Assembly: GCA_037893245.1 (NCBI GenBank)
Contig: JBAIAA010000667.1
Coordinates: 230,138-294,137, forward strand
DNA from: Crossaster papposus
Lineage: Eukaryota; Echinodermata; Asteroidea; Velatida; Solasteridae
DNA: 64,000 nt
Reading direction: 5' to 3'
The notes beneath the pieces were generated by a model. It was not told the DNA's origin, ran no database searches, and saw only the letters and a list, made by a program, of their open reading frames with translations. Position numbers and translations under genes: made by a program. Positions 1-64,000 of the stretch are shown here, piece by piece (the first letter of the stretch is position 1; every line of letters begins with the position of its first letter).

Positions 1-235
1 AAAACTGCTCACTCGACTCTACTAAAATGCACACTGCGACTTTATTCGACCCTATACTGACCCTTATGTCTCAACTCGACTCGAGTGATTTCCCTAAGAC
101 GGCTCGACTGCAGCCGAATCACTTAATACGGTAAGTCGTAATACTCTGGTTAATTATCACAGTTAATGCACTGAGATACATAATACGCACGAGCACCATT
201 TAAAAAACCAAAATTAAATACAAAATTAAACAAAA
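1..235. repeat. Partial spacer at left window edge
   Basis: This is a spacer cut by the window edge; the neighbouring tRNA gene that would lie to its left is outside. Near position 210 it has one A fewer than the usual spacer and an A-for-G change. No gene is visible in it. Confidence 0.9.
232..235 (-). terminator. Pol III T4 terminator (representative, copy 1)
   Basis: Directly after discriminator base A the minus strand has TTTT followed by G. A second TTTT lies ten bases further on, at 222-225. This arrangement recurs after the genes; the backup run is broken left of copy 45. T4 is enough for pol III in animals and plants but usually weak in budding yeast. Confidence 0.8.
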
Positions 236-246
236 TGCGTTGGCCG

Positions 247-257
247 GGAGTTGAACC
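247..257 (-). promoter_or_regulatory. B box of tRNA gene (representative, copy 1)
   Basis: The minus strand reads GGTTCAACTCC, a full match to the eukaryotic B-box pattern GGTTCRANTCC bound by TFIIIC. It spans the T stem and loop. The same site is present in every consensus copy; copies 113, 153 and 155 carry changes inside it. Confidence 0.9.
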
Positions 258-289
258 CGGGTCAATTGCTTGGAAGGCAACTATTCTAA

Positions 290-300
290 CCGCTATACCA
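290..300 (-). promoter_or_regulatory. A box of tRNA gene (representative, copy 1)
   Basis: The minus strand reads TGGTATAGCGG, which fits the pol III A-box pattern TRGYNNARNNG. Copies 6, 29, 31 and 108 are altered within it. Confidence 0.85.
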
Positions 301-307
301 CCAACGC

Positions 308-592
308 TTCGGGAGGGGATACGGAATGCCTAGCACCATATCCAAGCCGGGTGGCAAAAACTGCTCGCTCGACTCTACTAAAATGCACACTGCGACTTTA
401 TTCGACCCTATACTGACCCTTATGTCTCAACTCGACTCGAGTGATTTCCCTAAGACGGCTCGACTGCAGCCGAATCACTTAATACGGTAAGTCGTAATAC
501 TCTGGTTAATTATCACAGTTAATGCACTGAGATACATAATACGCACGAGCACCATTTAAAGAAACCGAAATTAAATACAAAATTAAACAAAA
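308..592. repeat. Representative intergenic spacer
   Basis: The spacer between tRNA genes 1 and 2 is typical of the array. Its right part, downstream of gene 2 on the minus strand, is AT-rich. Its middle is richer in CGAC-type motifs and contains PstI, XhoI and similar palindromes. I see no second tRNA, no 5S-like promoter, no SINE tail and no credible reading frame in it. It may only be satellite filler; its function is unknown. Confidence 0.8.
336..343 (-). promoter_or_regulatory. Weak TATA-like site about 30 bp upstream of tRNA (representative)
   Basis: The minus strand reads GGATATGG, with the ATAT core 31-34 bp upstream of tRNA base 1. TFIIIB often prefers an AT-rich site there. The match is poor, so this is only a possibility. 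It is kept in most units but deleted in the 250-bp units. Confidence 0.2.
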
Positions 593-664
593 TGCGTTGG
601 CCGGGAGTTGAACCCGGGTCAATTGCTTGGAAGGCAACTATTCTAACCGCTATACCACCAACGC
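593..664 (-). tRNA. trnG(ucc): tRNA-Gly (UCC), copy 2
   Basis: Consensus. Spacer to its left carries an A-to-G change in the motif after the upstream poly-A (near 368). Confidence 0.96.
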
Positions 665-949
665 TTCGGGAGGGGATACGGAATGCCTAGCACCATATCC
701 AAGCCGGGTGGCAAAAACTGCTCACTCGACTCTACTAAAATGCACACTGCGACTTTATTCGACCCTATACTGACCCTTATGTCTCAACTCGACTCGAGTG
801 ATTTCCCTAAGACGGCTCGACTGCAGCCGAATCACTTAATACGGTAAGTCGTAATACTCTGGTTAATTATCACAGTTAATGCACTGAGATACATAATACG
901 CACGAGCACCATTTAAAGAAACCAAAATTAAATACAAAATTAAACAAAA

Positions 950-1021
950 TGCGTTGGCCGGGAGTTGAACCCGGGTCAATTGCTTGGAAGGCAACTATTC
1001 TAACCGCTATACCACCAACGC
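950..1021 (-). tRNA. trnG(ucc): tRNA-Gly (UCC), copy 3
   Basis: Consensus. Confidence 0.96.
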
Positions 1022-1306
1022 TTCGGGAGGGGATACGGAATGCCTAGCACCATATCCAAGCCGGGTGGCAAAAACTGCTCACTCGACTCTACTAAAATGC
1101 ACACTGCGACTTTATTCGACCCTATACTGACCCTTATGTCTCAACTCGACTCGAGTGATTTCCCTAAGACGGCTCGACTGCAGCCGAATCACTTAATACG
1201 GTAAGTCGTAATACTCTGGTTAATTATCACAGTTAATGCACTGAGATACATAATACGCACGAGCACCATTTAAAGAAACCGAAATTAAATACAAAATTAA
1301 ACAAAA

Positions 1307-1378
1307 TGCGTTGGCCGGGAGTTGAACCCGGGTCAATTGCTTGGAAGGCAACTATTCTAACCGCTATACCACCAACGC
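1307..1378 (-). tRNA. trnG(ucc): tRNA-Gly (UCC), copy 4
   Basis: Consensus. Confidence 0.96.
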
Positions 1379-1663
1379 TTCGGGAGGGGATACGGAATGC
1401 CTAGCACCATATCCAAGCCGGGTGGCAACAACTGCTCACTCGACTCTACTAAAATGCACACTGCGACTTTATTCGACCCTATACTGACCCTTATGTCTCA
1501 ACTCGACTCGAGTGATTTCCCTAAGACGGCTCGACTGCAGCCGAATCACTTAATACGGTAAGTCGTAATACTCTGGTTAATTATCACAGTTAATGCACTG
1601 AGATACATAATACGCACGAGCACCATTTAAAGAAACCGAATTTAAATACAAAATTAAACAAAA

Positions 1664-1735
1664 TGCGTTGGCCGGGAGTTGAACCCGGGTCAATTGCTTG
1701 GAAGGCAACTATTCTAACCGCTATACCACCAACGC
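1664..1735 (-). tRNA. trnG(ucc): tRNA-Gly (UCC), copy 5
   Basis: Consensus. Left spacer has the common CAACAAC variant instead of CAAAAAC. Confidence 0.96.
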
Positions 1736-2020
1736 TTCGGGAGGGGATACGGAATGCCTAGCACCATATCCAAGCCGGGTGGCAAAAACTTCTCACTCGA
1801 CTCTACTAAAATGCACACTGCGACTTTATTCGACCCTATACTGACCCTTATGTCTCAACTCGACTCGAGTGATTTCCCTAAGACGGCTCGACTGCAGCCG
1901 AATCACTTAATACGGTAAGTCGTAATACTCTGGTTAATTATCACAGTTAATGCACTGAGATACATAATACGCACGAGCACCATTTAAAGAAACCGAAATT
2001 AAATACAAAATTAAACAAAA

Positions 2021-3520: not shown

Positions 3521-3698
3521 TTCGGGAGGGAATACGGAATGCCTAGCACTAGCACCTAAGACGGCTCGACTGCAGCCGAATCACTTAATACGGTAAGTCG
3601 TAATACTCTGGTTAATTATCACAGTTAATGCACTGAGATACATAATACGCACGAGCACCATTGAAAGAAACCGAAATTAAATACAAAATTAAACAAAA
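3521..3698. repeat. Short spacer (250-bp unit), first of five
   Basis: The spacer lacks 113 bp of the normal middle part and has 6 bp (TAGCAC) repeated at the join, net minus 107. The join reads CTAGCACTAGCACCTAAG. A linked G-to-A (GAGGGAATACGG) lies just before it. The TATA-like site of the gene to the left (copy 10) is removed. Confidence 0.92.
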
Positions 3699-3770
3699 TG
3701 CGTTGGCCGGGAGTTGAACCCGGGTCAATTGCTTGGAAGGCAACTATTCTAACCGCTATACCACCAACGC
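3699..3770 (-). tRNA. trnG(ucc): tRNA-Gly (UCC), copy 11
   Basis: Consensus, 250 bp from copy 10. Confidence 0.96.
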
Positions 3771-8804: not shown

Positions 8805-9266
8805 TTCGGGAGGGGATACGGAATGCCTAGCACCATATCCAAGCCGGGTGGCAAAAACTGCTCACTCGACTCTACTAAAATGCACACTGCGACTTTATTC
8901 GACCCTATACTGACCCTTATGTCTCAACTCGACTCGAGTGATTTCCCTAAGACGGCTCGACTGCAGCCGAATCACTTAATACGGTAAGTCGTAATACTCT
9001 GGTTAATTATCATATCCAAGCCGGGTGGCAAAAACTGCTCACTCGACTCTACTAAAATGCACACTGCGACTTTATTCGACCCTATACTGACCCTTATTTC
9101 TCAACTCGACTCGAGTGATTTCCCTAAGACGGCTCGACTGCAGCCGAATCACTTAATACGGTAAGTCGTAATACTCTGGTTAATTATCACAGTTAATGCA
9201 CTGAGATACATAATACGCACGAGCACCATTTAAAGAAACCGAAATTAAATACAAAATTAAACAAAA
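8805..9266. repeat. Fused spacer without a tRNA gene
   Basis: The longest stretch without a gene. A normal spacer runs to about 9012 (TTAATTATCA) and then joins TATCCAAGCC, a point just upstream of a tRNA in the next unit. The missing 180 bp would have held the rest of one spacer and one whole tRNA gene. Only a two-base overlap (CA) is shared at the join, pointing to end joining or slippage and not homologous exchange. No other gene is present. Confidence 0.9.
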
Positions 9267-9338
9267 TGCGTTGGCCGGGAGTTGAACCCGGGTCAATTGC
9301 TTGGAAGGCAACTATTCTAACCGCTATACCACCAACGC
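9267..9338 (-). tRNA. trnG(ucc): tRNA-Gly (UCC), copy 27
   Basis: Consensus; 534 bp from copy 26, the largest gap between genes. Confidence 0.96.
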
Positions 9339-12801: not shown

Positions 12802-13091
12802 TTCGGGAGGGGATACGGAATGCCTAGCACCATATCCAAGCCGGGTGGCAACAACTGCTCACTCGACTCTACTAAAATGCACACTGCGACTTTATTCGAC
12901 CCTATACTGACCCTTATGTCTCAACTCGACTCGAGTGATTTCCCTAAGACGGCTCGGCTCGACTGCAGCCGAATCACTTAATACGGTAAGTCGTAATACT
13001 CTGGTTAATTATCACAGTTAATGCACTGAGATACATAATACGCACGAGCACCATTTAAAGAAACCGAAATTAAATACAAAATTAAACAAAA

Positions 13092-13163
13092 TGCGTTGGC
13101 CGGGAGTTGAACCCGGGTCAATTGCTTGGAAGGCAACTATTCTAACCGCTATACCACCAACGC
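13092..13163 (-). tRNA. trnG(ucc): tRNA-Gly (UCC), copy 38
   Basis: Consensus. Left spacer is the first with the 5-bp GGCTC insertion. Confidence 0.96.
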
Positions 13164-13448
13164 TTCGGGAGGGGATACGGAATGCCTAGCACCATATCCA
13201 AGCCGGGTGGCAAAAACTGCTCACTCGACTCTACTAAAATGCACACTGCGACTTTATTCGACCCTATACTGACCCTTATGTCTCAACTCGACTAGAGTGA
13301 TTTCCCTAAGACGGCTCGACTGCAGCCGAATCACTTAATACGGTAAGTCGTAATACTCTGGTTAATTATCACAGTTAATGCACTGAGATACATAATACGC
13401 ACGAGCACCATTTAAAGAAACCGAAATTAAATACAAAATTAAACAAAA

Positions 13449-13520
13449 TGCGTTGACCGGGAGTTGAACCCGGGTCAATTGCTTGGAAGGCAACTATTCT
13501 AACCGCTATACCACCAACGC
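13449..13520 (-). tRNA. trnG(ucc): tRNA-Gly (UCC), copy 39, acceptor C66T
   Basis: The change at 13456 turns acceptor pair G7-C66 into G-U, which should be tolerated. Copy 44 shares it. Confidence 0.94.
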
Positions 13521-13805
13521 TTCGGGAGGGGATACGGAATGCCTAGCACCATATCCAAGCCGGGTGGCAAAAACTGCTCACTCGACTCTACTAAAATGCA
13601 CACTGCGACTTTATTCGACCCTATACTGACCCTTATGTCTCAACTCGACTCGAGTGATTTCCCTAAGACGGCTCGGCTGCAGCCGAATCACTTAATACGG
13701 TAAGTCGTAATACTCTGGTTAATTATAACAGTTAATGCACTGAGATACATAATACGCACGAGCACCATTTAAAGAAACCGAAATTAAATACAAAATTAAA
13801 CAAAA

Positions 13806-50320: not shown

Positions 50321-50605
50321 TTCGGGAGGGGATACGGAATGCCTAGCACCATATCCAAGCCGGGTGGCAAAAACTGCTCACTCGACTCTACTAAAATGCA
50401 CACTGCGACTTTATTCGACCCTATACTAACCCTTATGTTTCAACTCGACTCGAGTGATTTCCCTAAGACGGCTCGACTGCAGCCGAATCACTTAATACGG
50501 TAAGTCGTAATACTCTGGTTAATTATCACAGTTAATGCACTGAGATACATAATACGCACGAGCACCATTTAAAGAAACCGAAATTAAATACAAAATTAAA
50601 CAAAA

Positions 50606-50677
50606 TGCGTTGGCCAGGAGTTGAACCCGGGTCAATTGCTTGGAAGGCAACTATTCTAACCGCTATACCACCAACGC
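50606..50677 (-). tRNA. trnG(ucc): tRNA-Gly (UCC), copy 143, C63T
   Basis: The change at 50616 makes T-stem pair G51-C63 a G-U wobble; probably tolerated. Left spacer has ACTAACCC and TGTTTC. Confidence 0.94.
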
Positions 50678-50962
50678 TTCGGGAGGGGATACGGAATGCC
50701 TAGCACCATATCCAAGCCGGGTGGCAAAAACTGCTCACTCGACTCTACTAAAATGCACACTGCGACTTTATTCGACCCTATACTGACCCTTATGTCTCAA
50801 CTCGACTCGAGTGATTTCCCTAAGACGGCTCGACTGCAGCCGAATCACTTAATACGGTAAGTCGTAATACTCTGGTTAATTATCACAGTTAATGCACTGA
50901 GATACATAATACGCACGAGCACCATTTAAAGAAACCGAAATTAAATACAAAATTAAACAAAA

Positions 50963-51034
50963 TGCGTTGGCCGGGAGTTGAACCCGGGTCAATTGCTTAG
51001 AAGGCAACTATTCTAACCGCTATACCACCAACGC
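50963..51034 (-). tRNA. tRNA with Gly body and UCU (Arg) anticodon, copy 144
   Basis: One change at 50999 turns position 36 from C to T. The anticodon loop reads CTTCTAA and the anticodon is UCU, which reads arginine AGA. Everything else, including stems, A box, B box, discriminator A and T4 terminator, matches the consensus, so the gene could be transcribed. C36 is a glycine identity base in known systems, which should lower glycylation; arginine identity in eukaryotes rests partly on C35 and U36, which this copy now has. It could be a mischarged tRNA, a glycine-for-arginine missense suppressor, or simply a new mutation. Confidence 0.87.
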
Positions 51035-51320
51035 TTCGGGAGGGGATACGGAATGCCTAGCACCATATCCAAGCCGGGTGGCTAAAAACTGCTCACTCGA
51101 CTCTACTAAAATGCACACTGCGACTTTATTCGACCCTATACTGACCCTTATGTCTCAACTCGACTCGAGTGATTTCCCTAAGACGGCTCGACTGCAGCCG
51201 AATCACTTAATACGGTAAGTCGTAATACTCTGGTTAATTATCACAGTTAATGCACTGAGATACATAATACGCACGAGCACCATTTAAAGAAACCGAAATT
51301 AAATACAAAATTAAACAAAA

Positions 51321-51392
51321 TGCGTTGGCCGGGAGTTGAACCCGGGTCAATTGCTTGGAAGGCAACTATTCTAACCGCTATACCACCAACGC
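51321..51392 (-). tRNA. trnG(ucc): tRNA-Gly (UCC), copy 145
   Basis: Consensus. Left spacer +1 T. Confidence 0.96.
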
Positions 51393-51678
51393 TTCGGGAG
51401 GTGATACGGAATGCCTAGCACCATATCCAAGCCGGGTGGCTAAAAACTGCTCACTCGACTCTACTAAAATGCACACTGCGACTTTATTCGACCCTATACT
51501 GACCCTTATGTCTCAACTCGACTCGAGTGATTTCCCTAAGACGGCTTGACTGCAGCCGAATCACTTAATACGGTAAGTCGTAATACTCTGGTTAATTATC
51601 ACAGTTAATGCACTGAGATACATAATACGCACGAGCACCATTTAAAGAAACCGAAATTAAATACAAAATTAAACAAAA

Positions 51679-51750
51679 TGCGTTGGCCGGGAGTTGAACC
51701 CGGGTCAATTGCTTGGAAGGCAACTATTCTAACCGCTATACCACCAACGC
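51679..51750 (-). tRNA. trnG(ucc): tRNA-Gly (UCC), copy 146
   Basis: Consensus. Left spacer +1 T with GGCTTGAC. Confidence 0.96.
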
Positions 51751-52035
51751 TTCGGGAGGGGATACGGAATGCCTAGCACCATATCCAAGCCGGGTGGCAA
51801 AAACTGCTCACTCGACTCTACTAAAATGCACACTGCGACTTTATTCGACCCTATACTGACCCTTATGTCTCAACTCGACTCGAGTGATTTCCCTAAGACG
51901 GCTCGACTGCAGCCGAATCACTTAATACGGTAAGTCGTAATACTCTGGTTAATTATCACAGTTAATGCACTGAGATACATAATACGCACGAGCACCATTT
52001 AAAGAAACCGAAATTAAATACAAAATTAAACAAAA

Positions 52036-52107
52036 TGCGTTGGCCGGGAGTTGAACCCGGGTCAATTGCTTGGAAGGCAACTATTCTAACCGCTATACCA
52101 CCAACGC
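52036..52107 (-). tRNA. trnG(ucc): tRNA-Gly (UCC), copy 147
   Basis: Consensus. Confidence 0.96.
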
Positions 52108-52393
52108 TTCGGGAGGGGATACGGAATGCCTAGCACCATATCCAAGCCGGGTGGCTAAAAACTGCTCACTCGACTCTACTAAAATGCACACTGCGACTTT
52201 ATTCGACCCTATACTGACCCTTATGTCTCAACTCGACTCGAGTGATTTCCCTAAGACGGCTCGACTGCAGCCGAATCACTTAATACGGTAAGTCGTAATA
52301 CTCTGGTTAATTATCACAGTTAATGCACTGAGATACATAATACGCACGAGCACCATTTAAAGAAACCGAAATTAAATACAAAATTAAACAAAA

Positions 52394-52465
52394 TGCGTTG
52401 GCCGGGAGTTGAACCCGGGTCAATTGCTTGGAAGGCAACTATTCTAACCGCTATACCACCAACGC
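52394..52465 (-). tRNA. trnG(ucc): tRNA-Gly (UCC), copy 148
   Basis: Consensus. Left spacer +1 T. Confidence 0.96.
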
Positions 52466-52751
52466 TTCGGGAGGGGATTCGGAATGCCTAGCACCATATC
52501 CAAGCCGGGTGGCTAAAAACTGCTCACTCGACTCTACTAAAATGCACACTGCGACTTTATTCGACCCTATACTGACCCTTATGTCTCAACTCGACTCGAG
52601 TGATTTCCCTAAGACGGCTCGACTGCAGCCGAATCACTTAATACGGTAAGTCGTAATACTCTGGTTAATTATCACAGTTAATGCACTGAGATACATAATA
52701 CGCACGAGCACCATTTAAAGAAACCGAAATTAAATACAAAATTAAACAAAA

Positions 52752-52823
52752 TGCGTTGGCCGGGAGTTGAACCCGGGTCAATTGCTTGGAAGGCAACTAT
52801 TCTAACCGCTATACCACCAACGC
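52752..52823 (-). tRNA. trnG(ucc): tRNA-Gly (UCC), copy 149
   Basis: Consensus. Left spacer +1 T with GGATTCGG. Confidence 0.96.
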
Positions 52824-53108
52824 TTCGGGAGGGGATACGGAATGCCTAGCACCATATCCAAGCCGGGTGGCAAAAACTGCTCACTCGACTCTACTAAAAT
52901 GCACACTGCAACTTTATTCGACCCTATACTGACCCTGATGTCTCAACTCGACTCGAGTGATTTCCCTAAGACGGCTCGACTGCAGCCGAATCACTTAATA
53001 CGGTAAGTCGTAATACTCTGGTTAATTATCACAGTTAATGCACTGAGATACATAATACGCACGAGCACCATTTAAAGAAACCGAAATTAAATACAAAATT
53101 AAACAAAA

Positions 53109-53180
53109 TGCGTTGGCCGGGAGTTGAACCCGGGTCAATTGCTTGGAAGGCAACTATTCTAACCGCTATACCACCAACGC
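53109..53180 (-). tRNA. trnG(ucc): tRNA-Gly (UCC), copy 150
   Basis: Consensus. CTGCAAC and CTGATG at left. Confidence 0.96.
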
Positions 53181-53465
53181 TTCTGGAGGGGATACGGAAT
53201 GCCTAGCACCATATCCAAGCCGGGTGGCAAAAACTGCTCACTCGACTCTACTAAAATGCACACTGCGACTTTATTCGACCCTATACTAACCCTTATGTTT
53301 CAACTCGACTCGAGTGATTTCCCTAAGACGGCTCGACTGCAGCCGAATCACTTAATACGGTAAGTCGTAATACTCTGGTTAATTATCACAGTTAATGCAC
53401 TGAGATACATAATACGCACGAGCACCATTTAAAGAAACCGAAATTAAATACAAAATTAAACAAAA

Positions 53466-53537
53466 TGCGTTGGCCGGGAGTTGAACCCGGGTCAATTGCT
53501 TGGAAGGCAACTATTCTAACCGCTATACCACCAACGC
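53466..53537 (-). tRNA. trnG(ucc): tRNA-Gly (UCC), copy 151
   Basis: Consensus. ACTAACCC and TGTTTC at left. Confidence 0.96.
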
Positions 53538-53823
53538 TTCGGGAGGGGATACGGAATGCCTAGCACCATATCCAAGCCGGGTGGCTAAAAACTGCTCACT
53601 CGACTCTACTAAAATGCACACTGCGACTTTATTCGACCCTATACTGACCCTTATGTCTCAACTCGACTCGAGTGATTTCCCTAAGACGGCTCGACTGCAG
53701 CCGAATCACTTAATACGGTAAGTCGTAATACTCTGGTTAATTATCACAGTTAATGCACTGAGATACATAATACGCACGAGCACCATTTAAAGAAACCGAA
53801 ATTAAATACAAAATTAAACAAAA

Positions 53824-53895
53824 TGCGTTGGCCGGGAGTTGAACCCGGGTCAATTGCTTGGAAGGCAACTATTCTAACCGCTATACCACCAACGC
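53824..53895 (-). tRNA. trnG(ucc): tRNA-Gly (UCC), copy 152
   Basis: Consensus. Left spacer +1 T. Confidence 0.96.
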
Positions 53896-54180
53896 TTCGG
53901 GAGGGGATACGGAATGCCTAGCACCATATCCAAGCCGGGTGGCAAAAACCGCTCACTCGACTCTACTAAAATGCACACTGCGACTTTATTCGACCCTATA
54001 CTGACCCTTATGTCTCAACTCGACTCGAGTGATTTCCCTAAGACGGCTCGACTGCAGCCGAATCACTTAATACGGTAAGTCGTAATACTCTGGTTAATTA
54101 TCACAGTTAATGCACTGAGATACATAATACGCACGAGCACCATTTAAAGAAACCGAAATTAAATACAAAATTAAACAAAA

Positions 54181-54252
54181 TGCGTTGGCCGGAAGTTGAA
54201 TCCGGGTCAATTGCTTGGAAGGCAACTATTCTAACCGCTATACCACCAACGC
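54181..54252 (-). tRNA. trnG(ucc): tRNA-Gly (UCC), copy 153, G53A with C61T
   Basis: Two changes, at 54201 and 54193, convert the near-universal G53-C61 pair closing the T loop into A53-U61. Pairing is kept, but both bases belong to the B box, so TFIIIC binding may suffer. Confidence 0.9.
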
Positions 54253-54537
54253 TTCGGGAGGGGATACGGAATGCCTAGCACCATATCCAAGCCGGGTGGC
54301 AAAAACTGCTCACTCGACTCTACTAAAATGCACACTGCGACTTTATTCGACCCTATACTGACCCTGATGTCTCAACTCGACTCGAGTGATTTCCTTAAGA
54401 CGGCTCGACTGCAGCCGAATCACTTAATACGGTAAGTCGTAATACTCTGGTTAATTATCACAGTTAATGCACTGAGATACATAATACGCACGAGCACCAT
54501 TTAAAGAAACCGAAATTAAATACAAAATTAAACAAAA

Positions 54538-54609
54538 TGCGTTGGCCGGGAGTTGAACCCGGGTCAATTGCTTGGAAGGCAACTATTCTAACCGCTATAC
54601 CACCAACGC
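54538..54609 (-). tRNA. trnG(ucc): tRNA-Gly (UCC), copy 154
   Basis: Consensus. CTGATG at left. Confidence 0.96.
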
Positions 54610-54894
54610 TTCGGGAGGGGATACGGAATGCCTAGCACCATATCCAAGCCGGGTGGCAAAAACTGCTCACTCGACTCTACTAAAATGCACACTGCGACTT
54701 TATTCGACCCTATACTGACCCTTATGTCTCAACTCGACTCGAGTGATTTCCCTAAGACGGCTCGACTGCAGCCGAATCACTTAATACGGTAAGTCGTAAT
54801 ACTCTGGTTAATTATCACAGTTAAATTACTGTGATACATAATACGCACGAGCACCATTTAAAGAAACCGAAATTAAATACAAAATTAAACAAAA

Positions 54895-54966
54895 TGCGTT
54901 GGCCGGCAGTTGAACCCGGGTCAATTGCTTGGAAGGCAACTATTCTAACCGCTATACCACCAACGC
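54895..54966 (-). tRNA. trnG(ucc): tRNA-Gly (UCC), copy 155, C61G
   Basis: The change at 54907 makes C61 a G. It opens the G53-C61 pair and hits the B box. The left spacer has a cluster of changes near 54826-54833. Likely a weak or dead copy. Confidence 0.85.
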
Positions 54967-55251
54967 TTCGGGAGGGGATACGGAATGCCTAGCACCATAT
55001 CCAAGCCGGGTGGCAAAAACTGCTCACTCGACTCTACTAAAATGCACACTGCGACTTTATTCGACCCTATACTGACCCTTATGTCTCAACTCGACTCGAG
55101 TGATTTCCCTAAGACGGCTCGACTGCAGCCGAATCACTTAATACGGTAAGTCGTAATACTCTGGTTAATTATCACAGTTAATGCACTGAGATACATAATA
55201 CGCACGAGCACCATTTAAAGAAACCGAAATTAAATACAAAATTAAACAAAA

Positions 55252-55323
55252 TGCGTTGGCCGGGAGTTGAACCCGGGTCAATTGCTTGGAAGGCAACTAT
55301 TCTAACCGCTATACCACCAACGC
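55252..55323 (-). tRNA. trnG(ucc): tRNA-Gly (UCC), copy 156
   Basis: Consensus. Confidence 0.96.
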
Positions 55324-55609
55324 TTCGGGAGGGGATACGGAATGCCTAGCACCATATCCAAGCCGGGTGGCTAAAAACTGCTCACTCGACTCTACTAAAA
55401 TGCACACTGCGACTTTATTCGACCCTATACTGACCCTTATGTCTCAACTCGACTCGAGTGATTTCCCTAAGACGGCTTGACTGCAGCCGAATCACTTAAT
55501 ACGGTAAGTCGTAATACTCTGGTTAATTATCACAGTTAATGCACTGAGATACATAATACGCACGAGCACCATTTAAAGAAACCGAAATTAAATACAAAAT
55601 TAAACAAAA

Positions 55610-55681
55610 TGCGTTGGCCGGGAGTTGAACCCGGGTCAATTGCTTGGAAGGCAACTATTCTAACCGCTATACCACCAACGC
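55610..55681 (-). tRNA. trnG(ucc): tRNA-Gly (UCC), copy 157
   Basis: Consensus. Left spacer +1 T with GGCTTGAC. Confidence 0.96.
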
Positions 55682-55966
55682 TTCGGGAGGGGATACGGAA
55701 TGCCTAGCACCATATCCAAGCCGGGTGGCAAAAACTGCTCACTCGACTCTACTAAAATGCTCACTGCGACTTTATTCGACCCTATACTGACCCTTATGTC
55801 TCAACTCGACTCGAGTGATTTCCCTAAGACGGCTCGACTGCAGCCGAATCACTTAATACGGTAAGTCGTAATACTCTGGTTAATTATCACAGTTAATGCA
55901 CTGAGATACATAATACGCACGAGCACCATTTAAAGAAACCGAAATTAAATACAAAATTAAACAAAA

Positions 55967-56038
55967 TGCGTTGGCCGGGAGTTGAACCCGGGTCAATTGC
56001 TTGGAAGGCAACTATTCTAACCGCTATACCACCAACGC
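55967..56038 (-). tRNA. trnG(ucc): tRNA-Gly (UCC), copy 158
   Basis: Consensus. Confidence 0.96.
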
Positions 56039-56323
56039 TTCGGGATGGGATACGAAATGCCTAGCACCATATCCAAGCCGGGTGGCAAAAACTGCTCACT
56101 CGACTCTACTAAAATGCACACTGCGACTTTATTCGACCCTATACTGACCCTTATGTCTCAACTCGACTCGAGTGATTTCCCTAAGACGGCTCGACTGCAG
56201 CCGAATCACTTAATACGGTAAGTCGTAATACTCTGGTTAATTATCACAGTTAATGCACTGAGATACATAATACGCACGAGCACCATTTAAAGAAACCGAA
56301 ATTAAATACAAAATTAAACAAAA

Positions 56324-56395
56324 TGCGTTGGCCGGGAGTTGAACCCGGGTCAATTGCTTGGAAGGCAACTATTCTAACCGCTATACCACCAACGC
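56324..56395 (-). tRNA. trnG(ucc): tRNA-Gly (UCC), copy 159
   Basis: Consensus. GGATGGG marker at left, also left of copy 162. Confidence 0.96.
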
Positions 56396-56680
56396 TTCGG
56401 GAGGGGATACGGAATGCCTAGCACCATATCCAAGCCGGGTGGCAAAAACTGCTCACTCGACTCTACTAAAATGCACACTGCGACTTTATTCGACCCTATA
56501 CTGACCCTTATGTCTCAACTCGACTCGAGTGATTTCCCTAAGACGGCTCGACTGCAGCCGAATCACTTAATACGGTAAGTCGTAATACTCTGGTTAATTA
56601 TCACAGTTAATGCACTGAGATACATAATACGCACGAGCACCATTTAAAGAAACCGAAATTAAATACAAAATTAAACAAAA

Positions 56681-56752
56681 TGCGTTGGCCGGGAGTTGAA
56701 CCCGGGTCAATTGCTTGGAAGGCAACTATTCTAACCGCTATACCACCAACGC
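56681..56752 (-). tRNA. trnG(ucc): tRNA-Gly (UCC), copy 160
   Basis: Consensus. Confidence 0.96.
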
Positions 56753-57038
56753 TTCGGGAGGGGATACGGAATGCCTAGCACCATATCCAAGCCGGGTGGC
56801 TAAAAACTGCTCACTCGACTCTACTAAAATGCACACTGCGACTTTATTCGACCCTATACTGACCCTTATGTCTCAACTCGACTCGAGTGATTTCCCTAAG
56901 ACGGCTCGACTGCAGCCGAATCACTTAATACGGTAAGTCGTAATACTCTGGTTAATTATCACAGTTAATGCACTGAGATACATAATACGCACGAGCACCA
57001 TTTAAAGAAACCGAAATTAAATACAAAATTAAACAAAA

Positions 57039-57110
57039 TGCGTTGGCCGGGAGTTGAACCCGGGTCAATTGCTTGGAAGGCAACTATTCTAACCGCTATA
57101 CCACCAACGC
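57039..57110 (-). tRNA. trnG(ucc): tRNA-Gly (UCC), copy 161
   Basis: Consensus. Left spacer +1 T. Confidence 0.96.
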
Positions 57111-57395
57111 TTCGGGATGGGATACGAAATGCCTAGCACCATATCCAAGCCGGGTGGCAAAAACTGCTCATTCGACTCTACTAAAATGCACACTGCGACT
57201 TTATTCGACCCTATACTGACCCTTATGTCTCAACTCGACTCGAGTGATTTCCCTAAGACGGCTCGACTGCAGCCGAATCACTTAATACGGTAAGTCGTAA
57301 TACTCTGGTTAATTATCACAGTTAATGCACTGAGATACATAATACGCACGAGCACCATTTAAAGAAACCGAAATTAAATACAAAATTAAACAAAA

Positions 57396-57467
57396 TGCGT
57401 TGGCCGGGAGTTGAACCCGGGTCAATTGCTTGGAAGGCAACTATTCTAACCGCTATACCACCAACGC
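57396..57467 (-). tRNA. trnG(ucc): tRNA-Gly (UCC), copy 162
   Basis: Consensus. Confidence 0.96.
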
Positions 57468-57752
57468 TTCGGGAGGGGATACGGAATGCCTAGCACCATA
57501 TCCAAGCCGGGTGGCAAAAACTGCTCACTCGACTCTACTAAAATGCACACTGCGACTTTATTCGACCCTATACTGACCCTTATGTCTCAACTCGACTCGA
57601 GTGATTTCCCTAAGACGGCTCAACTGCAGCCGAATCACTTAATACGGTAAGTCGTAATACTCTGGTTAATTATCACAGTTAATGCACTGAGATACATAAT
57701 ACGCACGAGCACCATTTAAAGAAACCGAAATTAAATACAAAATTAAACAAAA

Positions 57753-57824
57753 TGCGTTGGCCGGGAGTTGAACCCAGGTCAATTGCTTGGAAGGCAACTA
57801 TTCTAACCGCTATACCACCAACGC
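57753..57824 (-). tRNA. trnG(ucc): tRNA-Gly (UCC), copy 163, C50T
   Basis: The change at 57776 makes T-stem pair C50-G64 a U-G wobble; probably tolerated. Confidence 0.94.
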
Positions 57825-58110
57825 TTCGGGAGGGGATACGGAATGCCTAGCACCATATCCAAGCCGGGTGGCTAAAAACTGCTCACTCGACTCTACTAAA
57901 ATGCACACTGCGACTTTATTCGACCCTATACTGACCCTTATGTCTCAACTCGACTCGAGTGATTTCCCTAAGACGGCTCGACTGCAGCCGAATCACTTAA
58001 TACGGTAAGTCGTAATACTCTGGTTAATTATCACAGTTAATGCACTGAGATACATAATACGCACGAGCACCATTTAAAGAAACCGAAATTAAATACAAAA
58101 TTAAACAAAA

Positions 58111-58182
58111 TGCGTTGGCCGGGAGTTGAACCCGGGTCAATTGCTTGGAAGGCAACTATTCTAACCGCTATACCACCAACGC
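58111..58182 (-). tRNA. trnG(ucc): tRNA-Gly (UCC), copy 164
   Basis: Consensus. Left spacer +1 T. Confidence 0.96.
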
Positions 58183-58467
58183 TTCGGGAGGGGATACGGA
58201 ATGCCTAGCACCATATCCAAGCCGGGTGGCAAAAACTGCTCACTCGACTCTACTAAAATGCACACTGCGACTTTATTCGACCCTATACTGACCCTTATGT
58301 CTCAACTCGACTCGAGTGATTTCCCTAAGACGGCTCGACTGCAGCCGAATCACTTAATACGGTAAGTCGTAATACTCTGGTTAATTATCACAGTTAATGC
58401 ACTGAGATACATAATACGCACGAGCACCATTTAAAGAAACCGAAATTAAATACAAAATTAAACAAAA

Positions 58468-58539
58468 TGCGTTGGCCGGGAGTTGAACCCGGGTCAATTG
58501 CTTGGAAGGCAACTATTCTAACCGCTATACCACCAACGC
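58468..58539 (-). tRNA. trnG(ucc): tRNA-Gly (UCC), copy 165
   Basis: Consensus. Confidence 0.96.
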
Positions 58540-58824
58540 TTCGGGAGGGGATACGGAATGCCTAGCACCATATCCAAGCCGGGTGGCAAAAACTGCTCAC
58601 TCGACTCTACTAAAATGCACACTGCGACTTTATTCGACCCTATACTGACCCTTATGTCTCAACTCGACTCGAGTGATTTCCCTAAGACGGCTCGACTGCA
58701 GCCGAATCACTTAATACGGTAAGTCGTAATACTCTGGTTAATTATCAAAGTTAATGCACTGAGATACATAATACGCACGAGCACCATTTAAAGAAACCGA
58801 AATTAAATACAAAATTAAACAAAA

Positions 58825-58896
58825 TGCGTTGGCCGGGAGTTGAACCCGGGTCAATTGCTTGGAAGGCAACTATTCTAACCGCTATACCACCAACGC
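58825..58896 (-). tRNA. trnG(ucc): tRNA-Gly (UCC), copy 166
   Basis: Consensus. TCAAAG marker at left, shared with copy 119. Confidence 0.96.
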
Positions 58897-59181
58897 TTCG
58901 GGAGGTGATACGGAATGCCTAGCACCATATCCAAGCCGGGTGGCAAAAACTGCTCACTCGACTCTACTAAAATGCACACTGCGACTTTATTCGACCCTAT
59001 ACTGACCCTTATGTCTCAACTAGACTCGAGTGATTTCCCTAAGACGGCTCGACTGCAGCCGAATCACTTAATACCGTAAGTCGTAATACTCTGGTTAATT
59101 ATCACAGTTAAGGCACTGAGATACATAATACGCACGAGCACCATTTAAAGAAACCGAAATTAAATACAAAATTAAACAAAA

Positions 59182-59253
59182 TGCGTTGGCCGGGAGTTGA
59201 ACCCGGGTCAATTGCTTGGAAGGCAACTATTCTAACCGCTATACCACCAACGC
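59182..59253 (-). tRNA. trnG(ucc): tRNA-Gly (UCC), copy 167
   Basis: Consensus. Confidence 0.96.
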
Positions 59254-59538
59254 TTCGGGAGGGGATACGGAATGCCTAGCACCATATCCAAGCCGGGTGG
59301 CAACAACTGCTCACTCGACTCTACTAAAATGCACACTGCGACTTTATTCGACCCTATACTGACCCTTATGTCTCAACTCGACTCGAGTGATTTCCCTAAG
59401 ACGGCTCGACTGCAGCCGAATCACTTAATACGGTAAGTCGTAATACTCTGGTTAATTATCACAGTTAATGCACTGAGATACATAATACGCACGAGCACCA
59501 TTTAAAGAAACCGAAATTAAATACAAAATTAAACAAAA

Positions 59539-59610
59539 TGCGTTGGCCGGGAGTTGAACCCGGGTCAATTGCTTGGAAGGCAACTATTCTAACCGCTATA
59601 CCACCAACGC
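59539..59610 (-). tRNA. trnG(ucc): tRNA-Gly (UCC), copy 168
   Basis: Consensus. Confidence 0.96.
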
Positions 59611-59895
59611 TTCGGGAGGGGATACGGAATGCCTAGCACCATATCCAAGCCGGGTGGCAAAAACTGCTCACTCGACTCTACTAAAATGCACACTGCGACT
59701 TTATTCGACCCTATACTGACCCTTATGTCTCAACTCGACTCGAGTGATTTCCCTAAGACGGCTCGACTGCAGCCGAATCACTTAATACGGTAAGTCGTAA
59801 TACTCTGGTTAATTATCACAGTTAATGCACTGAGATACATAATACGCACGAGCACCATTTAAAGAAACCGAAATTAAATACAAAATTAAACAAAA

Positions 59896-59967
59896 TGCGT
59901 TGGCCGGGAGTTGAACCCGGGTCAATTGCTTGGAAGGCAACTATTCTAACCGCTATACCACCAACGC
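59896..59967 (-). tRNA. trnG(ucc): tRNA-Gly (UCC), copy 169
   Basis: Consensus. Confidence 0.96.
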
Positions 59968-60252
59968 TTCGGGAGGGGATACGGAATGCCTAGCACCATA
60001 TCCAAGCCGGGTGGCAAAAACTGCTCACTCGACTCTACTAAAATGCACACTGCGACTTTATTCGACCCTATACTGACCCTTATGTCTCAACTCGACTCGA
60101 GTGATTTCCCTAAGACGGCTCGACTGCAGCCGAATCACTTAATACGGTAAGTCGTAATACTCTGGTTAATTATCACAGTTAATGCACTGAGATACATAAT
60201 ACGCACGAGCACCATTTAAAGAAACCGAAATTAAATACAAAATTAAACAAAA

Positions 60253-60324
60253 TGCGTTGGCCGGGAGTTGAACCCGGGTCAATTGCTTGGAAGGCAACTA
60301 TTCTAACCGCTATACCACCAACGC
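60253..60324 (-). tRNA. trnG(ucc): tRNA-Gly (UCC), copy 170
   Basis: Consensus. Confidence 0.96.
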
Positions 60325-60609
60325 TTCGGGAGGGGATACGGAATGCCTAGCACCATATCCAAGCCGGGTGGCAAAAACTGCTCACTCGACTCTACTAAAA
60401 TGCACACTGCGACTTTATTCGACCCTATAATGACCCTGATGTCTCAACTCGACTCGAGTGATTTCCCTAAGACGGCTCGACTGCAGCCGAATCACTTAAT
60501 ACGGTAAGTCGTAATACTCTGGTTAATTATCACAGTTAATGCACTGAGATACATAATACGCACGAGCACCATTTAAAGAAACTGAAATTAAATACAAAAT
60601 TAAACAAAA

Positions 60610-60681
60610 TGCGTTGGCCGGGAGTTGAACCCGGGTCAATTGCTTGGAAGGCAACTATTCTAACCGCTATACCACCAACGC
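60610..60681 (-). tRNA. trnG(ucc): tRNA-Gly (UCC), copy 171
   Basis: Consensus. CTGATG at left. Confidence 0.96.
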
Positions 60682-60967
60682 TTCGGGAGGGGATACGGAA
60701 TGCCTAGCACCATATCCAAGCCGGGTGGCTAAAAACTGCTCACTCGACTCTACTAAAATGCACACTGCGACTTTATTCGACCCTATACTGACCCTTATGT
60801 CTCAACTCGACTCGAGTGATTTTCCTAAGACGGCTCGACTGCAGCCGAATCACTTAATACGGTAAGTCGTAATACTCTGGTTAATTATCACAGTTAATGC
60901 ACTGAGATACATAATACGCACGAGCACCATTTAAAGAAACCGAAATTAAATACAAAATTAAACAAAA

Positions 60968-61039
60968 TGCGTTGGCCGGGAGTTGAACCCGGGTCAATTG
61001 CTTGGAAGGCAACTATTCTAACCGCTATACCACCAACGC
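60968..61039 (-). tRNA. trnG(ucc): tRNA-Gly (UCC), copy 172
   Basis: Consensus. Left spacer is the last with +1 T. Confidence 0.96.
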
Positions 61040-61324
61040 TTCGGGAGGGGATACGGAATGCCTAGCACCATATCCAAGCCGGGTGGCAAAAACTGCTCAC
61101 TCGACTCTACTAAAATGCACACTGCGACTTTATTCGACCCTATACTGACCCTGATGTCTCAACTCGACTCGAGTGATTTCCCTAAGACGGCTCGACTGCA
61201 GCCGAATCACTTAATACGGTAAGTCGTAATACTCTGGTTAATTATCACAGTTAATGCACTGAGATACATAATACGCACGAGCACCATTTAAAGAAACCGA
61301 AATTAAATACAAAATTAAACAAAA

Positions 61325-61396
61325 TGCGTTGGCCGGGAGTTGAACCCGGGTCAATTGCTTGGAAGGCAACTATTCTAACCGCTATACCACCAACGC
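61325..61396 (-). tRNA. trnG(ucc): tRNA-Gly (UCC), copy 173
   Basis: Consensus. CTGATG at left. Confidence 0.96.
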
Positions 61397-61681
61397 TTCG
61401 GGAGGGGATACGGAATGCCTAGCACCATATCCAAGCCGGGTGGCAAAAACTGCTCACTCGACTCTACTAAAATGCACACTGCGACTTTATTCGACCCTAT
61501 ACTGACCCTTATGTCTCAACTCGACTCGAGTGATTTCCCTAAGACGGCTCGACTGCAGCCGAATCACTTAATACGGTAAGTCGTAATACTCTGGTTAATT
61601 ATCACAGTTAATGCACTGAGATACATAATACGCACGAGCACCATTTAAAGAAACCGAAATTAAATACAAAATTAAACAAAA

Positions 61682-61753
61682 TGCGTTGGCCGGGAGTTGA
61701 ACCCGGGTCAATTGCTTGGAAGGCAACTATTCTAACCGCTATACCACCAACGC
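61682..61753 (-). tRNA. trnG(ucc): tRNA-Gly (UCC), copy 174
   Basis: Consensus. Confidence 0.96.
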
Positions 61754-62038
61754 TTCGGGAGGGGATACGGAATGCCTAGCACCATATCCAAGCCGGGTGG
61801 CAACAACTGCTCACTCGACTCTACTAAAATGCACACTGCGACTTTATTCGACCCTATACTGACCCTTATGTCTCAACTCGACTCGAGTGATTTCCCTAAG
61901 ACGGCTCGACTGCAGCCGAATCACTTAATACGGTAAGTCGTAATACTCTGGTTAATTATCACAGTTAATGCACTGAGATACATAATACGCACGAGCACCA
62001 TTTAAAGAAACCGAAATTAAATACAAAATTAAACAAAA

Positions 62039-62110
62039 TGCGTTGGCCGGGAGTTGAACCCGGGTCAATTGCTTGGAAGGCAACTATTCTAACCGCTATA
62101 CCACCAACGC
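62039..62110 (-). tRNA. trnG(ucc): tRNA-Gly (UCC), copy 175
   Basis: Consensus. Confidence 0.96.
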
Positions 62111-62395
62111 TTCGGGAGGGGATACGGAATGCCTAGCACCATATCCAAGCCGGGTGGCAAAAACTGCTCACTCGACTCTACTAAAATGCACACTGCGACT
62201 TTATTCGACCCTATACTGACCCTTATGTCTCAACTCGACTCGAGTGATTTCCCTAAGACGGCTCGACTGCAGCCGAATCACTTAATACGGTAAGTCGTAA
62301 TACTCTGGTTAATTATCACAGTTAATGCACTGAGATACATAATACGCACGAGCACCATTTAAAGAAACCGAAATTAAATACAAAATTAAACAAAA

Positions 62396-62467
62396 TGCGT
62401 TGGCCGGGAGTTGAACCCGGGTCAATTGCTTGGAAGGCAACTATTGTAACCGCTATACCACCAACGC
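62396..62467 (-). tRNA. trnG(ucc): tRNA-Gly (UCC), copy 176, G22C
   Basis: The change at 62446 replaces G22 with C, losing the U13-G22 wobble at the top of the D stem. Confidence 0.91.
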
Positions 62468-62752
62468 TTCGGGAGGGGATACTGAATGCCTAGCACCATA
62501 TCCAAGCCGGGTGGCAAAAACTGCTCACTCGACTCTACTAAAATGCACACTGCGACTTTATTCGACCCTATACTGACCCTTATGTCTCAACTCGACTCGA
62601 GTGATTTCCCTAAGACGGCTCGACTGCAGCCGAATCACTTAATACGGTAAGTCGTAATACTCTGGTTAATTATCACAGTTAATGCACTGAGATACATAAT
62701 ACGCACGAGCACCATTTAAAGAAACCGAAATTAAATACAAAATTAAACAAAA

Positions 62753-62824
62753 TGCGTTGGCCGGGAGTTGAACCCGGGTCAATTGCTTGGAAGGCAACTA
62801 TTCTAACCGCTATACCACCAACGC
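62753..62824 (-). tRNA. trnG(ucc): tRNA-Gly (UCC), copy 177
   Basis: Consensus. Confidence 0.96.
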
Positions 62825-63109
62825 TTCGGGAGGGGATACGGAATGCCTAGCACCATATCCAAGCCGGGTGGCAAAAACTGCTCACTCGACTCTACTAAAA
62901 TGCACACTCCGACTTTATTCGACCCTATACTGACCCTTATGTCTCAACTCGACTCGAGTGATTTCCCTAAGACGGCTCGACTGCAGCCGAATCACTTAAT
63001 ACGGTAAGTCGTAATACTCTGGTTAATTATCACAGTTAATGCACTGAGATACATAATACGCACGAGCACCATTTAAAAAAACCGAAATTAAATACAAAAT
63101 TAAACAAAA

Positions 63110-63181
63110 TGCGTTGGCCGGGAGTTGAACCCGGGTCAATTGCTTGGAAGGCAACTATTCTAACCGCTATACCACCAACGC
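63110..63181 (-). tRNA. trnG(ucc): tRNA-Gly (UCC), copy 178
   Basis: Consensus. Confidence 0.96.
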
Positions 63182-63466
63182 TTCGGGAGGGGATACGGAA
63201 TGCCTAGCACCATATCCAAGCCGGGTGGCAAAAACTGCTCACTCGACTCTACTAAAATGCACACTGCGACTTTATTCGACCCTATACTGACCCTTATGTC
63301 TCAACTCGACTCGAGTGATTTCCCTAAGACGGCTCGACTGCAGCCGAATCACTTAATACGGTAAGTCGTAATACTCTGGTTAATTATCACAGTTAATGCA
63401 CTGAGATACATAATACGCACGAGCACCATTTAAAGAAACCGAAATTAAATACAAAATTAAACAAAA

Positions 63467-63538
63467 TGCGTTGGCCGGGAGTTGAACCCGGGTCAATTGC
63501 TTGGAAGGCAACTATTCTAACCGCTATACCACCAACGC
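63467..63538 (-). tRNA. trnG(ucc): tRNA-Gly (UCC), copy 179
   Basis: Consensus. Confidence 0.96.
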
Positions 63539-63823
63539 TTCGGGAGGGGATACGGAATGCCTAGCACCATATCCAAGCCGGGTGGCAAAAACTGCTCACT
63601 CGACTCTACTAAAATGCACACTGCGACTTTATTCGACCCTATACTGACCCTTATGTCTCAACTCGACTCGAGTGATTTCCCTAAGACGGCTCGACTGCAG
63701 CCGAATCACTTAATACGGTAAGTCGTAATACTCTGGTTAATTATCACAGTTAATGCACTGAGATACATAATACGCACGAGCACCATTTAAAGAAACCGAA
63801 ATTAAATACAAAATTAAACAAAA

Positions 63824-63895
63824 TGCGTTGGCCGGGAGTTGAACCCGGGTCAATTGCTTGGAAGGCAACTATTCTAACCGCTATACCACCAACGC
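63824..63895 (-). tRNA. trnG(ucc): tRNA-Gly (UCC), copy 180
   Basis: Consensus; last complete gene in the window. Confidence 0.96.
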
Positions 63896-64000
63896 TTCGG
63901 GAGGGGATACGGAATGCCTAGCACCATATCCAAGCCGGGTGGCAAAAACTGCTCACTCGACTCTACTAAAATGCACACTGCGACTTTATTCGACCCTATA
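63896..64000. repeat. Partial spacer at right window edge
   Basis: First 105 bp of a normal spacer, cut by the window end. The array continues in phase, so its right edge is not here. Confidence 0.95.

What the first reader, a model, noticed from the sequence alone, without database searches (positions are those of the whole stretch)
1..64000. A 64-kb satellite made of 180 tRNA-Gly(UCC) genes
Seen: 180 intact-looking glycine tRNA genes of a single isoacceptor in head-to-tail 357-bp units, no other gene, all on one strand, both edges outside the window. Known: repeated tRNA clusters exist (Entamoeba tRNA arrays, the Xenopus tDNA repeat, Arabidopsis Pro and Ser-Tyr clusters), but those I recall either mix isoacceptors or hold fewer copies. 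Inference: this is a tDNA satellite in which the repeat unit itself is a pol III gene. It may be a dosage device, a chromatin structure, or a selfish expansion.
Basis: partly seen in the sequence, partly recalled or inferred. Interest (0 to 1): 0.88.

Follow-up and report, generated by a model that had tools for sequence, protein, structure and literature searches.

The report
Long tandem array of glycine tRNAs
The window is one piece of a very long, nearly uniform row of glycine tRNA genes in what is probably an echinoderm; long tRNA-gene rows are known elsewhere, but this one is unusually large, and its tRNA sequence has stayed the same between two branches of the row even though single copies seem free to decay.

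Summary
The window carries 180 tRNA genes on one strand: 178 Gly(UCC), one Ala and one Arg anticodon mutant; 143 of 179 spacings are 357 bp. It is the end of a 294-kb contig that is array wherever sampled, apart from inserted elements. About 415, 240 and 200 kb of three other contigs are array where sampled. The 1.02-Gb assembly holds 3,473 copies within 3 mismatches, 2,460 exact. Contig ends overlap exactly and this contig closes on itself, so order and copy number are assembly-dependent. The mitochondrial code points to an echinoderm. Lys(UUU) also forms arrays. Within the array, mutations hit tRNA and spacer equally; between two subfamilies the tRNA consensus differs at 0 of 72 sites, the spacer at 16-22 of about 284. 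Best reading: a tRNA satellite turned over by unequal exchange, its copies individually dispensable, its spreading lineages carrying an intact tRNA; probably a dosage reserve. tRNA satellites are known (maize, Hydractinia). Expression is untested.

The parts
1..64000 (-). Tandem array of 180 tRNA genes (178 Gly-UCC), unit 357 bp; continues to the left through contig C667; base 64000 is the contig end
593..664 (-). Representative consensus tRNA-Gly(UCC) gene, 72 nt, followed by TTTT; A- and B-box sequences match the recalled pol III consensus
   Evidence: RF00005, 61.8 bits; box consensus recalled
39529..39600 (-). Copy with anticodon UGC (ARAGORN: Ala) plus one further change
50963..51034 (-). 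Copy with anticodon UCU (ARAGORN: Arg)
3521..3770 (-). Shortened 250-bp unit (others at 5556-5805, 6520-6769, 8555-8804, 11481-11730); tRNA kept, spacer shorter
8805..9338 (-). 534-bp unit (177 bp longer)
15321..15624 (-). 304-bp unit
12802..44608 (-). Stretch within which the 17 units with a 5-bp spacer insertion (16 of 362 bp, one of 363) are scattered
40517..64000 (.). Overlap with the start of contig C800: C800:1-3000 identical to 40517-43516; C800:15001-15300 identical, and only at the expected place; still in phase at C800:25001 (a 300-mer that is not unique)
54819..55818 (.). Identical to the last 1000 bases of contig C321, reverse complement; out of phase further on
59626..64000 (.). 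Identical (0 mismatches in 4,375) to C667:1-4375, the other end of the same contig: the contig closes on itself

Best explanation
This is a tRNA satellite. A functional tRNA-Gly(UCC) gene with its 5' flank and terminator became the repeat unit of an array of about 1.1 Mb (assembly count) and about 3,400 copies, probably in an echinoderm nucleus. Unequal exchange and block duplication expand and homogenise it (supported by local variants, unit-length variants, similarity at lags of 3, 6, 8 and 9 units, and one decayed edge). Single copies mutate freely (shown), yet the variants that found and replace subfamilies keep the tRNA intact (shown as a consensus difference in one diverged subfamily; inferred to be selection on the array's total output of functional tRNA). 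The most likely use is a dosage reserve of one isoacceptor, perhaps drawn on in a restricted stage or cell type (inference by analogy with the Arabidopsis SYY cluster and the Xenopus oocyte tRNA arrays; no expression data here).
For: Intact genes with a terminator: 155 of 180 in the window and 548 of 696 in the pool are identical over 72 nt. Genome-wide 2,460 exact and 3,473 within 3 mismatches, control 0. Polymorphism within the 357-bp family is equal in tRNA and spacer (3.79 against 3.49 variant cells per kb; single-versus-shared spectra p=0.62 and 0.67), and variants that break a stem pair are not rarer than expected (49 of 87, expected 41.6), so copies are individually dispensable. Between the 357-bp family and the 355-bp subfamily the tRNA consensus differs at 0 of 72 sites, against 17, 16 and 22 of about 284 spacer sites at three places. 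Fixed-versus-polymorphic Fisher p=0.003 and by sites p=0.011, both computed only for the most diverged place (22 of 284). Individual units of that zone: 25 of 2,579 tRNA positions differ against 678 of 9,955 spacer positions (my sums over 5 loci). The C165 edge runs 82, 96, 99, 100, 100 and 97.5% identity going in.
Against: No expression, chromatin or read-depth data. The contrast rests on one diverged subfamily sampled at five places of one contig, and the site count is small (0 of 72). Individual tRNAs in that zone do vary (0 to 2 differences each in the units listed), and anticodon mutants are common in two of the loci (7 of 20 genes). The C321 edge is abrupt, not decayed (100, 100, 100 and 97.5% right behind it). 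Of the eight variants with 10 or more carriers, several are dispersed over distant stretches (T213A, G355A, T85G). The pool counts about 20 of 696 genes twice where contigs overlap. A constant consensus could also come from gene conversion with functional copies elsewhere (three exact copies on C118), or because pol III factor binding itself favours amplification. Demand for Gly GGA codons was not tested.
Confidence: 0.55

Rival explanations
1. Neutral or selfish satellite: the tRNA gene is a passenger, and the array grew by unequal exchange without any benefit.
For: Mutations in single tRNA copies look neutral: density, spectrum and structural effect are as expected by chance. Anticodon mutants are tolerated. 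Mobile elements sit inside the array.
Against: The tRNA consensus is unchanged between subfamilies while the spacer changed at 16-22 of about 284 sites.
Confidence: 0.25
2. Pol III-dependent selfish expansion: binding of TFIIIC or pol III at the A and B boxes promotes breakage, pausing or exchange, so that only units with intact boxes amplify. The tRNA would be conserved as a recombination signal, not as a tRNA.
For: It explains equally well why the consensus is kept while single copies drift.
Against: The unchanged consensus covers all 72 sites, not only the boxes. There are no data on breakage.
Confidence: 0.1
3. Chromatin element: the array works as an insulator, boundary or centromere-like block, as proposed for the human 1q23.3 tRNA repeat.
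For: 357 bp is close to two nucleosome repeats (inference). The human tDNA repeat is linked to CTCF and a domain boundary (PMC4041453, passages).
Against: Nothing was measured; the chromosomal position is unknown; the longest unchanged block between subfamily consensuses is the tRNA with the bases just after it.
Confidence: 0.06
4. Assembly inflation: the real array is much smaller, or the assembly counts two haplotypes and overlapping contig ends.
For: The contig closes on itself over 4,375 bp without a mismatch, and two other contigs start inside the window. Three different non-array flanks adjoin array ends. Many 300-bp pieces match over 100 places exactly.
Against: Five 3.7-kb loci of C800 and C321 have no match closer than 15 to 28 mismatches in the other fetched stretches, apart from L008's own place. 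The overlaps found so far come to about 30 kb at most of about 1.15 Mb, though not all contig stretches were compared. Halving for haplotypes would still leave over 1,700 copies.
Confidence: 0.04

Closest known systems
Maize tRNA satellite (tRNASAT_ZM; 91.95-kb array on chr4L of Mo17, PMC10335936; passages seen)
   Same: A tRNA satellite array on one chromosome arm
   Different: Plant; about a twelfth of the summed length here; the passages do not say which tRNA or whether the genes are intact
Hydractinia tRNA tandem arrays (PMC11067881; passages seen)
   Same: Roughly evenly spaced arrays of near-identical tRNA genes with near-identical spacers in an animal genome, for all 20 amino acids
   Different: Tens to hundreds of copies per array as described; here about 3,400 of one isoacceptor over several contigs, with Lys(UUU) as a second arrayed gene
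Arabidopsis SYY cluster (PMC12308677; abstract and passages seen)
   Same: Tandem repeated tDNA, redundant; reported as silent in most tissues, active in root cap cells, and its deletion alters a Ser/Tyr/Pro-rich transgenic glycoprotein
   Different: Mixes Ser and Tyr genes; 27 units (PMC12652284, passage)
Xenopus oocyte-type tandem tRNA arrays (commentary PMC11500080; passages seen)
   Same: Tandemly arrayed tRNA genes in an animal; reported as activated at zygotic genome activation
   Different: Expression is reported there and is only a guess here
Human 1q23.3 tRNA VNTR (PMC4041453; abstract and passages seen)
   Same: tRNA macrosatellite with variable copy number, tRNAs conserved to mouse and spacer not
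   Different: 7.3-kb unit, five tRNA genes per unit, 9-43 copies
Entamoeba tRNA arrays (PMC2652664; search listing with the start of the abstract only)
   Same: tRNA genes organised as tandem arrays, over 10% of the genome there
   Different: Up to 5 tRNA genes per unit, STR spacers

Membership tests
Cytosolic tRNA-Gly(UCC) gene | Scores as tRNA in a covariance model, UCC anticodon | tested here: met
   RF00005 61.8 bits on 2 of 2 copies tested; ARAGORN Gly-TCC 178 of 180
Cytosolic tRNA-Gly(UCC) gene | Internal A and B boxes and a T-run terminator | tested here: met
   Box sequences printed and compared by eye with a recalled consensus; TTTT after the gene
Cytosolic tRNA-Gly(UCC) gene | Transcribed and aminoacylated | not testable with these tools
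   No RNA data
tRNA satellite / tandem tRNA array | Head-to-tail copies with near-identical spacers over tens of kb or more | tested here: met
tRNA satellite / tandem tRNA array | Concerted evolution: variants spread locally, edges decay | tested here: inconclusive
   For: subfamily consensus, block lags, C165 edge, some clustered variants. Against: C321 edge abrupt, some variants dispersed
tRNA satellite / tandem tRNA array | Copy number confirmed independently of the assembly | not testable with these tools
   No reads held
tRNA-derived SINE | tRNA-like head with a non-tRNA body, retroposed and dispersed copies | tested here: not met
   Copies are tandem and the tRNA is intact with its terminator directly behind it. 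Outside the array contigs only three exact copies (C118) appear among the listed places, and the listing is partial
Stage-specific dosage array (SYY- or oocyte-type) | Expression restricted to a stage or tissue | not testable with these tools
   No expression data
Chromatin boundary tDNA repeat (1q23.3 type) | CTCF or boundary association | not tested
   No chromatin data

The most novel reading that the evidence does not exclude
In this animal, part of the tRNA supply is organised like rDNA: single-isoacceptor arrays of hundreds to thousands of genes (Gly-UCC, Lys-UUU), kept functional as a population and not copy by copy, and switched on as a bank in oogenesis or early development. The contig that closes on itself would be a real extrachromosomal circle of about 290 kb, a tRNA counterpart of oocyte rDNA amplification.
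Probability: 0.06. Interest if true: 0.85.

Novelty: new member of a known kind. Interest (0 to 1): 0.52.

Why it matters
It gives a natural test of how selection acts on a gene family far larger than seems needed: copies look free to decay, yet the consensus is held between subfamilies. It also shows that one satellite can dominate a tRNA gene count, and that more than one isoacceptor is arrayed in the same genome. If the arrays prove to be stage-specific, they would be an animal model for tRNA dosage by copy number.

Tried and rejected
Considered and rejected: chance (reversed-pattern control 0); a tRNA-derived SINE array (tandem, intact gene with terminator). Silk or collagen demand as the driver was only an idea from the Gly codon and was not tested. 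CpG content (observed/expected 1.19; 12 CpG transitions among 109 distinct substitution variants) gave no sign of methylation decay, which does not decide methylation. Protein searches for the organism's name gave no species: the best named hits of the piggyBac piece were Lytechinus pictus (48%), below several unnamed hits of 51-75%; the zinc-knuckle ORF had a weak Amphiura filiformis hit (E 9.9e-5); the COX1 piece, for which only 7,995 candidates were scored, listed octopus, flies, an anemone, Trichoplax and a fungus among its named hits, with an unnamed 62% hit on top. The ten paper searches found no report of this array, in a library that lacks most subscription journals. Counting all isoacceptors failed: only 63 of 213,984 tRNA candidates were scored, and the Gly array itself is absent from the 61 hits, so that list is a small and skewed sample. 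The initiator-Met count did not complete. The exact Lys 73-mer that I used as a query occurs once only; the 740 copies are within 3 mismatches.
Full report
WHAT IS THERE. The window is a head-to-tail array with 180 tRNA genes on the - strand: 178 Gly(UCC), one Ala(UGC) at 39529 and one Arg(UCU) at 50963. 155 of 180 genes are identical over 72 nt. 143 of 179 intervals are 357 bp; the rest are 362 (16), 358 (11), 250 (5), 356, 363, 304 and 534 (one each). Rfam's tRNA model gives 61.8 bits on both copies tested, against a gathering score of 29. A TTTT run follows each gene directly, and in nearly all a second one lies 10 bp on.

HOW FAR IT EXTENDS. The window is G000:C667:230138-294137 of a 1,023,315,904-base assembly in 1841 contigs. 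C667 is 294,137 bases long. I read 17 full 10-kb stretches of it outside the window (bases 1-100,000 and seven further stretches up to 230,000), and each carries the array, interrupted by mobile elements in two of them. C800 (1,239,835 bases) is array from base 1 to about 415,524 in the places sampled. C165 (1,269,795) is array from between 1,029,380 and 1,030,101 to its end, and C321 (1,395,822) from about 1,195,548 to its end, in the places sampled. The sum is about 1.15 Mb with overlaps counted twice. The exact 72-mer occurs 2,460 times in the genome (607 forward, 1,853 reverse), and 3,473 times with up to 3 mismatches (819 and 2,654); the control pattern gave 0 each time. These counts include the overlapped contig ends. 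Three exact copies lie on C118, outside the four contigs (only the first places are listed).

WHAT THE ASSEMBLY DOES NOT SETTLE. The first 4,375 bases of C667 are identical to its last 4,375 (window 59626-64000), so the contig closes on itself. C800:1-3000 equals window 40517-43516; C800:15001-15300 matches once, at the expected place; phase is kept at C800:25001 (a 300-mer with 145 exact matches, so weak on its own) and lost at C800:32001. The last 1000 bases of C321 equal window 54819-55818 on the other strand and are out of phase further on. This looks like a fork in an assembly graph: C165 is one flank, C800 and C321 are two different opposite flanks, and C667 is a loop. It may be one locus in two haplotypes or two loci. 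A real circle of about 290 kb is not excluded. Copy number and order are therefore those of the assembly.

WHY I TAKE THE ARRAY AS REAL. Some variants are clustered by place (T307G: 31 of 36 carriers in the window; G27A: all 12 in three neighbouring stretches), while others with 10 or more carriers are dispersed (T213A, G355A, T85G). Units are more alike at lags of 3, 6, 8 and 9 units than at lag 1, as block duplication predicts. The C165 edge decays outwards (82, 96, 99, 100, 100, 97.5% going in); the C321 edge is abrupt. Five 3.7-kb loci from C800 and C321 have no match closer than 15-28 mismatches in the other fetched stretches, L008's own place apart. A piggyBac transposon flanked by TTAA on both sides sits in one unit, a reverse-transcriptase element interrupts the array near C667:177,984, and a zinc-knuckle ORF element adjoins the array end on C800, about 14 bp upstream of the last tRNA.

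SELECTION. I pooled 696 tRNA genes from the window, 17 other C667 stretches and one stretch each of C800, C165 and C321; 548 are exact. In 550 ungapped 357-bp units (one of 551 dropped as too different), variant cells per kb are 3.79 in the tRNA and 3.49 in the spacer, and the ratios of single to shared variants do not differ (p=0.62 for at least 5 copies, 0.67 for at least 2). 49 of 87 tRNA variants break a stem pair, with 41.6 expected. About 20 of the 696 genes are counted twice because of the contig overlaps. Single variants could include sequencing errors, but shared ones show the same balance. So a single copy is not visibly selected. Between subfamilies the picture reverses. A 355-bp subfamily in C800 (consensus from 9, 7 and 10 units at 200, 300 and 390 kb) has the same 72-nt consensus (0 of 72 differences), while the spacer differs at 17 of 283, 16 of 283 and 22 of 284 sites. 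For the last of these, Fisher p=0.011 by sites and p=0.003 for fixed against polymorphic; the other two were not tested. Individual units of that zone differ from the 357 consensus at 25 of 2,579 tRNA positions against 678 of 9,955 spacer positions (my sum over L028, L029, L030, L033, L053). Anticodon mutants occur there too (6 CCC and 1 TTC among 20 genes of L029 and L030).

HOST. COX1 on C1841 (16,330 bp) has 13 in-frame TGA. In the 233 codons fetched, six AAA codons fall where COX1 has Asn (that those sites are Asn in most animals is recalled), which fits the echinoderm code. Flatworms share that code, but this COX1 is 77-83% identical to the named animals listed, and the best named piggyBac relative is from Lytechinus pictus (48%). 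I call it probably an echinoderm; no species was identified. C8 carries a COX1 in a 682-aa frame without TGA, in a contig of more than 5.2 Mb, and is probably bacterial.

NOT ALONE. A tRNA search scored 63 of 213,984 candidates. 30 of its 61 hits lie on C479 between 24,360 and 485,654, all on one strand; 9 of the 29 intervals are exact multiples of 572 bp, the others deviate by up to 270. The three copies fetched, one each from C479, C424 and C55, are Lys(UUU). Within 3 mismatches of the C479 copy there are 740 matches (37 and 703, control 0), among the listed places on C479 (572- and 576-bp steps) and on C424 (about 770-bp steps, in two opposite orientations). The exact 73-mer occurs once.

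MECHANISM. Shown: intact genes, near-identical units, one decayed edge, free drift of copies, an unchanged tRNA consensus in one diverged subfamily. Inferred: turnover by unequal exchange; selection on the summed output of the array, or on which variants spread; a dosage reserve. Analogues: the Arabidopsis SYY cluster, silent in most tissues and active in root-cap cells (PMC12308677), and the Xenopus oocyte tRNA arrays active at zygotic genome activation (commentary PMC11500080). Rivals are a neutral satellite, a pol III-driven selfish expansion, a chromatin element and assembly inflation (see the fields).

NOVELTY. tRNA satellites are known: maize, 91.95 kb (PMC10335936, passages); Hydractinia, tens to hundreds of copies, all 20 amino acids (PMC11067881, passages); the human 1q23.3 repeat (PMC4041453, passages); Entamoeba (PMC2652664, listing only). 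Plant clusters reach 110 genes (PMC12652284, passages). Zebrafish and Nematostella have about 20,000 and over 17,000 tDNAs in total, with mostly mixed neighbouring pairs (PMC2888827, passages). In ten paper searches I found no single-isoacceptor array of this size, in a library that lacks most subscription papers. I file it as a new member of a known kind, large in degree.

Noticed in passing
G000 contig C479:24360-485654 (L101) and C424:1269129-1376202 (L102): Further tRNA arrays, Lys(UUU): 572-576-bp steps on C479, about 770-bp steps on C424 in two opposite orientations; 740 matches within 3 mismatches genome-wide.
   Followed up: partly
G000:C8 (>5.2 Mb): Probably a bacterial contig in the assembly: a COX1 with a 682-aa open frame without TGA, and high-scoring tRNAs.
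   Followed up: no
L020, about 1905-5095 (C667:130001-140000): piggyBac transposon (PF13843, E 9.9e-82) inserted in a tRNA unit, TTAA on both sides, with a 483-codon stretch open in the transposase frame.
   Followed up: partly
L073:25-1733 (C800:415525 on): An element with a zinc-knuckle ORF (PF00098) adjoins the end of the array; possibly a retroelement that targets tRNA arrays, as Dewa does for a tRNA-Leu spacer in zebrafish (PMC3706591, passage), but target specificity was not tested.
   Followed up: partly
L022:7985-10000 (C667:177985 on): Element with reverse transcriptase (PF00078) and weak RNase H matches inserted in the array; a DIRS-like affiliation is only a guess.
   Followed up: no
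C165:1226590-1226661: One exact Gly tRNA copy on the + strand inside the C165 array, whose other listed copies are on the - strand; the genome-wide forward count (819) also exceeds the roughly 560 units that C321 can hold. Inversions inside the arrays are likely.
   Followed up: no
window 1-64000 and pooled C667, C800, C165, C321 units: Transitions are only about 40% of substitution variants (singletons 47 against 68 transversions, 2-4 copies 47 against 72, 5 or more copies 13 against 18), low for animal DNA as I recall it.
   Followed up: no
L029, L030 (C800:300001-303000, 390001-394000): Gly-bodied copies with CCC (6) and TTC (1) anticodons among 20 genes; if transcribed, the TTC one here and the TCT and TGC ones in the window could misread codons.
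   Followed up: no
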